In this document: piece by piece, positions 27,260-54,326 of the stretch | Numbering within the stretch: the stretch's first letter is position 1 | Layout of the letters: the number at the start of each line of letters is the position of its first letter | Origin: Acanthochlamys bracteata | Taxonomy: Eukaryota > Streptophyta > Magnoliopsida > Pandanales > Velloziaceae | Assembly (NCBI GenBank): GCA_019914995.1 | Contig: CM034136.1 | Coordinates: 4,603,270-4,667,269, forward strand | DNA: 64,000 nt | Direction: 5' to 3' | Notes under the pieces: model-generated | What the model was told of the DNA's origin: nothing | Seen by the model: only the letters and a program-made list of their open reading frames with translations | Databases searched by the model: none | Translations under genes and position numbers: made by a program

Positions 27260-28640
27260 GTTTAATAAATAGTTCAGATGATTCAATGGATATTTGGATG
27301 CCTTTTTTTGATGATCCAATGGATGTTTCTATAACGTCATATTCAACTTCTAAAAATATTTCGAATAACCAAGACGAAGATAGACGGACACAACTCGTGA
27401 TACATGCAAATTATCATACAGCGGCTATATGTGTATACAATAAGATAAAAGATCTCTACCATACATTTATACGCTCAGGTCATCGACTTATTTGGAAATA
27501 TTATAGGGAAATGAGAGTCGCTGCTACTCAAATTTTCATATGAGAAAAGATATTTTTCAAGCATTCTGTCAATGTTTGACATGTGATTACGATTTAAAAT
27601 CAACAAGATCAACAACAGTTGAGTAGTGTTGCAATATTTCTTTTAACTTGTGCTCACGGATCTACAAATAGATTACTTCAAGAGATGTTTAATCATTCGG
27701 GAGAAACAATTTCTAGACATTTTCGTAAAGTATTGTTGGAAGCTATACTACGATTATCAAAATATTTACTACGAGCACATCCGCAATATAATGAAGGGGT
27801 AATTTACTACAAATCAAAGAACACACTATATCTTCCGTGGTTTTAAGTAATAAATTAATTTCTCATTATAGTAGCAAATATTTCTTATAATGCGAGAAAC
27901 TTATTTTTGTTAATTTGAACATTAGATATTTTATTACAGGATTGAATTGGAGCAATTGACAGAACTCATATAAAAACTATACTGTTAATTGTTGAGCGGA
28001 TATCTTACAGTAGCCGTAAAGGATATATTACTCAGAACGTTTTTGTAATTTGTGAGTTCAATATATGCTTCACTTTTGTATTGGCTGGATCAGAAGAAAG
28101 TGCTCACGACACAAAAGTTTTTAACGAAGCATTATATAACCTAGAACACGAGTTTCCTAATCTTTTAAGCAACAAATATTATCTTGTGGATGCTAGTTAT
28201 AGACACATGCTAATTTATATGGCGCCATATACAAGTGAAGGCATAAGATATCATCTCAGTAATTTTCGACATTCAAGTAAAGCTCAGTTGCAGAAACCAA
28301 GGCGTTCAAGAGAAAAATTCAACCGATTTTACTATTCCTACAGAAGTATTATCGAACGTATCTTTGGTGTATGGAAAGCTCGATTTAAAATCTTAGAAAA
28401 TATGCCACCATATTATATTGATATTTAACGAGATATTGTCATTGTTACAATGACAATTCATAATTTTATCGGAAAGAAAGGTAACAAAACGTGAAAGTTT
28501 TGTTCCATCATCCGTAAAAGCATCATGTAGTACGTCCAATATTACGCCGATAGAGATAGATGCTGATGAAAGTATTTCAGACTGGCATGTATATCGCAAT
28601 GCTATTGCTATGAGAATGTCAAATGTATAATTATTTTTAG
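27260..28640 (+). pseudogene. Harbinger-type DDE transposase (HARBI1-like), broken
   Basis: This is the nuclease half of the PIF/Harbinger element. In order it shows FLLTCAHGSTNRLLQEMFNH and GETISRHFRKVL (helix-turn-helix region), then GAIDRTHIK with the first catalytic Asp (about 27,970-27,996). Next come GYITQNVFVICEFNICFTFV and AGSEESAHDTKVFNEAL with the second Asp, YYLVDASYRHM, and finally RSIIERIFGVWKARFKIL with the catalytic Glu near 28,360. The reading is interrupted by stop codons and frame changes, for instance a stop directly before GAIDRTHI, so no active protein is possible. The three acidic residues themselves are kept, which suggests moderate age. Confidence 0.85.
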
Positions 28641-53075: not shown

Positions 53076-53394
53076 GTTTAAAGCATAGTTATCGGAATCG
53101 AAACGAACGTTGATCCGAAAAGTTGTCCGGATCGATGGTTTCCGGTTGGACCCGGCGGGCCGACGGTTCGACCGCCGGATCAATGTCGGCATAGAAGTTG
53201 CTGTCGCAGCACCGCCAAAGAGATTAAATCGCATGCAAGATAACAAAGCAGCGAAGAGCTCAACGAAGCAGCGAGAAGCAGTAAAGGTATTTCGGTGAAC
53301 TGCTATTGAGAAATTTCAAACCCACAAATAGATTCATAATTTCATAGATAGATAGAAGAAAAAAAACCAAGATCTACTTGATCCATAACAGCTT

Positions 53395-53780
53395 CTGCTA
53401 CTACAGCGGTGGCTTCGGCGGAGTACGAAGTATGCTTACAATCCTGTCCACTGATCGTATACCGAATTCGATTCACTCGTTGAAGAATCAAAAATTGATT
53501 CAATCTCCGTTGTCCTCAATCGCCGTGATATTCCCAGCTGTGAAACACCTTTACATCTAGTCATTCGTCTCTTTGACCATGTCTCTGTTGACCTTTTTAT
53601 CTCCGCCGGCGCTAATTGGTCCCTTCAGAACAAGCATGGTTTGGTCTAGTTTGTAGGAAGCATCTGTCGTGTCATCGGAAAGAAAATCTTGCTAGAATTA
53701 TTGTAAGACATTACCAGTCGCTTGCTTGGGCCAAGTGGTGCCGTCGCGATTTTATCGTCATGCTCCTGTAGTTAGTTTGC
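53395..53780 (+). pseudogene. Captured fragment of an ankyrin-repeat protein gene (ANKRD13 / GPCR-chaperone type)
   Basis: From 53,476 the plus strand reads LVEESKIDSISVVLNRRD, then ETPLHLVIRLFDHVSVD, then SAGANWSLQN, up to a stop near 53,648. In another frame, about 53,685-53,745 reads LARIIVRHYQSLAWAKWCRR. Plant ankyrin proteins of this family carry the pattern RRDVPxRETPLHLAVRL, GADWSLQNEQGWSALQEA, IIVRHYQPLAWAKWCRR in the same order and spacing (from memory). The fragment covers the ankyrin repeats but not the C-terminal domain, and it has stops and frame changes. It is a dead partial copy carried by the hAT-like element. Confidence 0.82.
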
Positions 53781-53919
53781 CGTGGCCGATGAGACCTACG
53801 CTGACACAGTCATGGAACACACTCATCGCTGTGAAGATGAGCCTCAGGATGCTTAGCTTCTCTCGTGACACCGTTGTTGGTCGGGTGTTAGGTTAAGACC
53901 GTTGCTGTGCTCTAGTTCA

Positions 53920-54024
53920 CGTCTGCACCGCCACCAGCTTCTTCAAATCGCCGATCAAATCGTCCTCGTTGCTCTTTACACGAACCTTCTTCCCCAATCG
54001 ATCGTTCAACACCACCTCGATCAT
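53920..54024 (-). pseudogene. Captured 5' fragment of ubiquitin-like protein 5 (UBL5/HUB1)
   Basis: The minus strand from 54024 reads [18 protein letters not shown], then [17 protein letters not shown], a near-perfect match to the first 35 of about 73 residues of UBL5 (usual start [19 protein letters not shown]). A stop codon follows immediately at the capture border, so the second half of the ubiquitin fold is absent. Upstream, 54,025-54,100 may be captured UBL5 leader. UBL5 binds splicing factors non-covalently and is one of the most conserved eukaryotic proteins, which is why this short match is convincing. Confidence 0.88.
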
Positions 54025-54326
54025 CTTCTTCTCCTTCTTCTCCTTCGTTGAGCGCGCAACCGCACACGCACCGCCGAAGAAAGAAAAAACCATCCAGAGA
54101 AAGAAAACATAAACAAGGTAGAGTTAATCCGATCCAAAGAAGCATAGAAAATTTTTTTTATTTTAATAATTAGCCCGGATCAACCCGGGCGGGCAGGTCA
54201 CCGGGTCACAACGGATTAGTTACGTATCCGGTTCTTTTGCAAATTCGGACCGGTTTAGTGTCCGGGTCGACGATTAGCGGGTCGACCCGGACGGTCCGAT
54301 CCGGACTTGCCAGTTATGGTTTAAAG

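What the first reader, a model, noticed from the sequence alone, without database searches (positions are those of the whole stretch)
53076..54326. A hAT-like element has captured pieces of two unrelated host genes
The sequence shows a perfect 8-bp target duplication, inverted termini, an ankyrin-protein fragment on one strand and the first 35 codons of UBL5 on the other, with no transposase. Gene capture is well known for Pack-MULEs and Helitrons but less often described for hAT-type elements, and two donors in 1.2 kb is notable. The UBL5 piece includes its ATG, so antisense or short peptide products could arise if it is transcribed (inference).
Basis: partly seen in the sequence, partly recalled or inferred. 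Interest (0 to 1): 0.8.

Follow-up and report, generated by a model that had tools for sequence, protein, structure and literature searches.

The report
Jumping DNA carrying three gene pieces
A small jumping element in a plant genome carries broken pieces of three unrelated host genes, was copied to several chromosomes after it was assembled, and one of its copies carries a different end, so it gives a partial record of how such gene-shuffling elements are built.

Summary
Window 53084-54318 is a non-autonomous hAT-type element with a perfect 8-bp duplication (GTTTAAAG). Best donor matches lie at separate loci (C1; C14; C3/C5). Three further copies (C6, C3, C5; 88-90% identical to the window copy) share the composite interior, each with its own 8-bp duplication, so it moved as a unit. 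The terminal motif has 1,032 matches in the genome (37 for the control); target sites fit nTnnnnAn, the published Hermes (hAT) consensus. A C4 element has ANKRD13 and UGT without UBL5; a C11 locus has UBL5 and right arm without the others. The C3 copy has a different right arm, switching at TGATA inside the 8-bp site where another gene-carrying element is nested in its sister copy. That suggests break repair by template switching (inferred, noticed post hoc). The pieces are degenerate, without a sign of coding selection. Pack-hATs are already in print: a new, informative member of a known kind. No autonomous partner was shown; expression was not testable.

The parts
53076..53083 (.). left copy of the 8-bp target-site duplication GTTTAAAG
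53084..53183 (+). left terminal arm, CGG-rich, begins CATAGTTATCGG; keeps a 28-bp stretch that the three sister copies lack
   Evidence: terminus family; alignment
53184..53306 (.). subterminal stretch of unassigned origin, shared with the four copies and in part with L010 (C4) and L011 (C7)
53307..53747 (+). ANKRD13-like fragment: 5'UTR and start of the coding exon, with a 72-75 bp internal deletion; start codon position reads ATA (53385-53387); stops and frameshifts
   Evidence: (C1:6646501-6647014, 81-84%), donor Pfam, alignment
53747..53856 (-).
   Evidence: (C14:255368-255476, 81%), donor PF00201; a closer paralogue of the UGT piece of the C4 relative at C14:248317-248488 (85%)
53857..53886 (.). 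short filler between the UGT and UBL5 parts; its right edge is where homology with the C11 locus L005 begins (element position 803)
53909..54040 (-). UBL5 fragment: ATG at 54024-54022, 35 codons, then a stop, plus a few bases upstream of the ATG
   Evidence: (C3:11636736-11636867, 92%)
54041..54128 (.). stretch of unassigned origin (possibly more UBL5 upstream sequence), shared by the four copies and L005
54129..54318 (-). right terminal arm, homologous in the C6 and C5 copies and L005, replaced in the C3 copy
54319..54326 (.). right copy of the 8-bp target-site duplication GTTTAAAG

Best explanation
The feature is a non-autonomous Pack-TYPE element of the hAT superfamily (a Pack-hAT). SHOWN: 8-bp duplications, a terminal motif shared by a large family, an interior made of pieces of three host genes whose best matches lie on different contigs, and four copies at different sites with the same composite interior, so the composite was put together before it spread. 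SHOWN: the parts also occur apart: C4 has left arm + ANKRD13 + UGT with another right end, C11 has UBL5 + right arm, and the C3 copy has another right arm on the same cargo. INFERRED: the elements move by cut and paste with a transposase supplied in trans by a hAT element; breaks inside or beside elements are repaired by template switching onto unlinked genes or onto other family members, which adds gene pieces and swaps ends, and any product that keeps two usable ends can spread. INFERRED: the cargo makes no protein; it is decaying DNA that at most could give antisense or small RNA against the donors.
For: Perfect TSD; sister copies with own 8-bp sites CCTACAAG, GTTGGCTG/GTTAGCTG (7 of 8) and TTTTATAC; terminus motif 1,032 against 37; target consensus T at position 2 in 17 of 21 and A at 7 in 16 of 21 sites, fitting nTnnnnAn (PMC2803484, passages); hAT dimerisation domains in the genome, 150 scored of 316 candidates; donors; separate modules L010, L005; arm swap in the C3 copy: ANK part 95-97% identical to the C6 and C5 copies but right arm 59-63%, sharp switch with 5-bp overlap TGATA; between copies no excess of third-position changes.
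Against: No transposase gene with these ends was shown: 0 of the 20 fetched 10-kb stretches around termini shows a recognisable hAT transposase by eye (no profile search was run on them), and only 1 of the 100 listed termini has a hAT dimerisation hit about 0.7 kb inside (C5:5844187), which could be chance. The window copy's own inverted repeats are poor. L010 has no matching 8-bp duplication. Whether L010 and L005 are precursors or decayed derivatives is not settled. E1's right arm also aligns, at 75% overall, through E3's right arm, so the swap rests on the contrast with the cargo and with the C6 and C5 copies.
Confidence: 0.82

Rival explanations
1. Fusion of neighbouring elements: two hAT elements inserted close together are mobilised by their outer ends, taking the DNA between them (the Pack-CACTA / Pack-TYPE model). 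The L010-like left half and the L005-like right half would then be the two fused elements.
For: Both halves exist as separate loci. Gisby and Catoni describe AB/BB fusions and say hAT examples are in their S5 Fig (PMC8903248, section 9 read). A GC-rich family element lies 595 bp upstream of the captured ANKRD13 stretch on C1. A nested case is present in the C5 copy.
Against: The three donors are unlinked (C1, C14, C3/C5), the ANKRD13-UGT junction has 0-1 bp of overlap, and the C3 copy has only a new right arm joined at TGATA, without a second pair of internal ends or a remnant of the nested element.
Confidence: 0.3
2. The ends are those of another superfamily with 8-9 bp duplications (MULE, P element), and hAT is the wrong name.
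For: No transposase with these ends was found; superfamily assignment rests on duplication length, target consensus and end sequence.
Against: nTnnnnAn target preference (17 of 21 and 16 of 21); 21 duplications are 8 bp by the test used, which looked for 8 bp only; many hAT dimerisation domains in the genome.
Confidence: 0.08
3. Functional regulatory element: the antisense and sense pieces (with 5'UTRs and the UBL5 ATG) give transcripts or small RNA that control the donor genes.
For: All three pieces come from 5' parts of genes; UBL5 keeps its ATG and 35 codons.
Against: Donor identity is 77-92%, below what usually directs silencing (recalled); frames are broken; no selection at codon positions. 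No expression data could be used.
Confidence: 0.07
4. Assembly artefact or chance similarity.
For: Draft assembly of 557 contigs.
Against: Four copies with different flanks and duplications; donor matches down to E = 1e-50.
Confidence: 0.01

Closest known systems
Pack-TYPE hAT elements (Pack-hAT) of maize and rice, Gisby and Catoni 2022, PMC8903248 (passages and section 9 seen)
   Same: 8-bp duplications, no transposase, host-gene pieces inside, multi-copy families, fusion-type variants mentioned for hAT (their S5 Fig, not seen).
   Different: Here three donors in 1.2 kb with separate modules and an arm swap at a mapped junction; in the parts seen, the two-donor case described in detail is a Pack-PIF.
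Maize Ds2 and Ds-l4 elements carrying gene fragments, PMC3260210 (abstract and passages seen)
   Same: hAT, about 1 kb, conserved ends, gene-derived filler; the authors call gene capture rare in hAT (2 Ds2 and 9 Ds-l4 elements in a survey of 903).
   Different: There, in the passages seen, captures are described one by one and with introns; here one three-donor composite has four copies.
Animal Pack-TIRs, PMC8277862 (passages seen)
   Same: 208 of 370 are hAT; capture explained by template switching with short microhomology (median 2 bp); a frog hAT-N8_XT family has three copies with distinct duplications.
   Different: Mostly single-copy; median captured size 224 bp.
Pack-MULEs of grasses (recalled, and as cited in the papers above)
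   Same: Gene pieces, GC-rich and from 5' ends of genes (recalled).
   Different: Longer terminal repeats and 9-bp duplications (recalled), not seen here.

Membership tests
hAT superfamily | 8-bp target-site duplication | tested here: met
   Window copy and three sisters; 21 family elements at no more than 1 mismatch; 4 further elements with 2 mismatches were left out
hAT superfamily | target preference nTnnnnAn | tested here: met
   T2 17 of 21 (p 6e-6), A7 16 of 21 (p 8e-5); consensus as given for Hermes in PMC2803484
hAT superfamily | short terminal inverted repeats shared by a family | tested here: met
   (1,032 against 37); weak in the window copy itself, 9 of 20
hAT superfamily | hAT transposase in an autonomous member with the same ends | tested here: inconclusive
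Pack-TYPE element | no transposase | tested here: met
   10 translated segments, no transposase
Pack-TYPE element | interior copied from host genes at other loci | tested here: met
Pack-TYPE element | mobilised as a unit after capture | tested here: met
   Four copies, different flanks and duplications, same interior
Pack-TYPE element | empty site in relatives | tested here: inconclusive
   No relative genome held; joined flanks matched only the site itself across the junction, 0 of 8 other matches span it

The most novel reading that the evidence does not exclude
The C3 copy records an end swap caused by excision of a nested hAT element: a gene-carrying element inserted at GTTGATAC (still present in the C5 sister) left, the break was repaired by template switching at the 5-bp match TGATA onto an unlinked family member, and the copy gained a new right arm. 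If so, the same event with an unlinked gene as template is how these elements collect exons, a route that a 2026 review calls possibly undiscovered for unlinked sequences.
Probability: 0.25. Interest if true: 0.65.

Novelty: new member of a known kind. Interest (0 to 1): 0.45.

Why it matters
Capture of gene pieces by hAT elements was called rare in 2011 and has been surveyed mainly in maize and rice in the papers seen. Here one genome holds a three-donor hAT composite, its separate modules, an arm-swapped copy with a mapped junction, and a second gene-carrying lineage nested in it. This allows the order of events and the junctions to be tested, which bears on how cut-and-paste elements pick up unlinked gene pieces.

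Tried and rejected
Rejected: two donors only (third donor found); intact UBL5 or ankyrin product (stops, lost ATG); descent of the composite from one locus with the same layout (not seen). Rejected: E3's new right arm being an arm of the nested element (against the nested element's left arm 72%, no better than against ordinary family members at 73-75%; no hit to its right arm). Tried without result: other family members in the window (only weak, mostly AT-rich matches); Pfam on the largest open segments of the GC-rich elements L038 and L034 (no family); empty site; a UBL5 hAT capture paper (0 papers). Left open: the origin of 53184-53306 and 54041-54128, which may be donor flanks too diverged to recognise.

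Dropped rows: 4 of 28 rows are artefacts of nesting or of a duplicated end; 4 more with two TSD mismatches were left out of the target-site count; the outer C5 copy was added by reading.

Full report
What was checked. The window is part of contig C11 of an unnamed 195.5-Mb genome in 557 contigs; the gene content (UGT, PMEI-like, DUF3339, PPR) points to a plant. The stretch 53084-54318 is bounded by GTTTAAAG on both sides. Two randomly placed 8-mers of the window agree in 12 of 200,000 draws. The inverted ends of this copy are poor (9 of 20 bases), but CATAGTTRKCRRAHYCGR with up to one mismatch occurs 531 + 501 times in the genome against 17 + 20 for the reversed pattern, so the ends belong to a large family.

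Family. One search fetched 20 stretches of about 10 kb that cover the first 22 of the zero-mismatch termini listed. Pairing ends and duplications in all loci then held gave mostly AT-rich elements of 0.62-0.83 kb (G+C 0.23-0.30), and fewer GC-rich ones of 1.2-1.7 kb (G+C 0.40-0.47) that include the window element. In 21 elements with no more than one mismatch in the duplication, position 2 is T in 17 and position 7 is A in 16 (p 6e-6 and 8e-5). This fits nTnnnnAn, given for the hAT element Hermes in PMC2803484 (passages). The genome has many hAT dimerisation domains (150 scored of 316 candidates). One, on C5, lies about 0.7 kb inside a listed terminus; by my estimate from listed positions such a neighbour is not very unlikely by chance, and the stretch could not be fetched.

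Copies. Three other places carry the same interior: C6, C3 and C5. Over the alignment the window copy is 88-90% identical to them, and they are 89-92% identical to each other. Each has its own 8-bp site: CCTACAAG, GTTGGCTG/GTTAGCTG (one mismatch), TTTTATAC. The window copy keeps a 28-bp stretch in its left arm that the other three lack; similar letters stand in the C4 and C7 relatives (by eye), so it is probably ancestral.

Donors. (1) ANKRD13-like, plus strand, element 224-664: 81-84% to C1:6646501-6647014, whose translated part hits PF11904 at 5.7e-56; paralogues on C2 and C1 match less well. The piece runs from the 5'UTR into the coding exon, with 72-75 bp missing. (2) UDP-glycosyltransferase, minus strand, element 664-773: 81% to C14:255368-255476, whose translation hits PF00201 at 1.6e-22; for the related C4 element a neighbouring place, C14:248317-248488, is closer, 85%. 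(3) UBL5, minus strand, element 826-957: 92% to C3:11636736-11636867 and 89% to C5:48591-48714; the donor product matches solved UBL5 at about 1e-36. The UBL5 fragment itself gives no Pfam hit: its identity rests on DNA similarity to the donor.

Modules. The C4 element L010 (1,089 bp) has left arm, ANKRD13 and UGT, the latter reaching the UGT start codon near the right end, but no UBL5 match. It keeps the ANKRD13 stretch that the four copies lack and lacks another, so both come from a longer ancestor. It has no matching duplication. The C11 locus L005 matches element positions 803-1235 only, that is filler, UBL5 and right arm; no second end was found in the 1.5 kb beyond. The C7 locus L011 has the left arm and the start of the ANKRD13 piece. 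These may be precursors or decayed relatives; I cannot tell which.

Arm swap. In the ANKRD13 part the C3 copy is 95-97% identical to the C6 and C5 copies, but in the right arm only 59-63%, while C6 and C5 have 81% with each other there. The C3 right arm matches C2:13002337-13002505 (83%) and C1:8693992-8694176 (80%); matches to C5 and C6 end at query 148 and 147 and those to other elements begin at 144. The overlap is TGATA. In the C5 copy this lies inside GTTGATAC, the duplication of a nested 1,383-bp family element. By my arithmetic a random 5-bp junction falls inside a given 8-bp site of a 1.2-kb element in about 0.3% of cases; I noticed it post hoc. Against: the window copy aligns at 75% right through to query 297, because all arms of the family are related; and the C3 arm is not an arm of the nested element.

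A second gene-carrying lineage. The nested element has full-length relatives on C9, C2 (two), C8 (91-94%) and C4 (79%) (40 of 76 candidates scored). It carries a DUF3339 reading frame (PF11820, 5.7e-21), with TAG at what would be codon 4 in the two copies read (by eye), and a PMEI-like piece (6.9e-4 and 1.8e-3, below the Pfam cut-off). Capture is thus recurrent in this family.

Function. In the donor's ANKRD13 frame, copies differ at positions 1, 2 and 3 by, for example, 17, 7 and 10 (window against C6) and 4, 5 and 3 (C3 against C5), so there is no third-position excess. Of 60 private substitutions in the window copy 37 are C to T or G to A (21 of 34, 20 of 51 and 16 of 24 in the others), as expected for methylated, silent DNA (inference). 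I conclude that the pieces are decaying cargo. Expression was not testable.

Literature. Searches. Pack-hAT as a term was in 2 papers of this library. PMC8903248 (passages, section 9) finds Pack-hATs in maize and rice and explains them by fusion of neighbours, with a two-donor Pack-PIF as an example. PMC3260210 (passages) calls capture rare in hAT and counts 2 Ds2 and 9 Ds-l4 elements with gene fragments. PMC8277862 (passages) attributes 208 of 370 animal Pack-TIRs to hAT and argues for template switching. PMC13317346 (passages) says another, yet undiscovered mechanism may exist for unlinked fragments. None of the parts seen shows a three-donor hAT composite with separate modules; supplementary figures were not seen, and most subscription papers are outside the library.

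Noticed in passing
L004:2472-3854 (C5:5070888-5072270) and L050:8319-9700 (C2): A second gene-carrying element lineage with the same ends: DUF3339 frame (stop at codon 4 in both copies read) plus a PMEI-like piece; six full-length matches including itself.
   Followed up: partly
L038:301-1643 (C1:6647609-6648951): A GC-rich element of the same family sits 595 bp upstream of the captured stretch of the ANKRD13 donor gene; relatives at 74-79% on C2, C7, C6 and C17.
   Followed up: partly
C5:5844187 (terminus) and C5:5844881-5845078: hAT dimerisation domain about 0.7 kb inside a perfect terminus; possible autonomous or decayed helper.
   Followed up: no
L034:301-2042 and L044:7464-9700 (C1): Another GC-rich lineage of the family (73-79% alike); the largest open segment of L034 gave no Pfam family.
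   Followed up: partly
window 27946-28425 (+): Open frame with a DDE_Tnp_4 domain (PF13359, 8.7e-14), a transposase of another kind; PIF/Harbinger is recalled.
   Followed up: no
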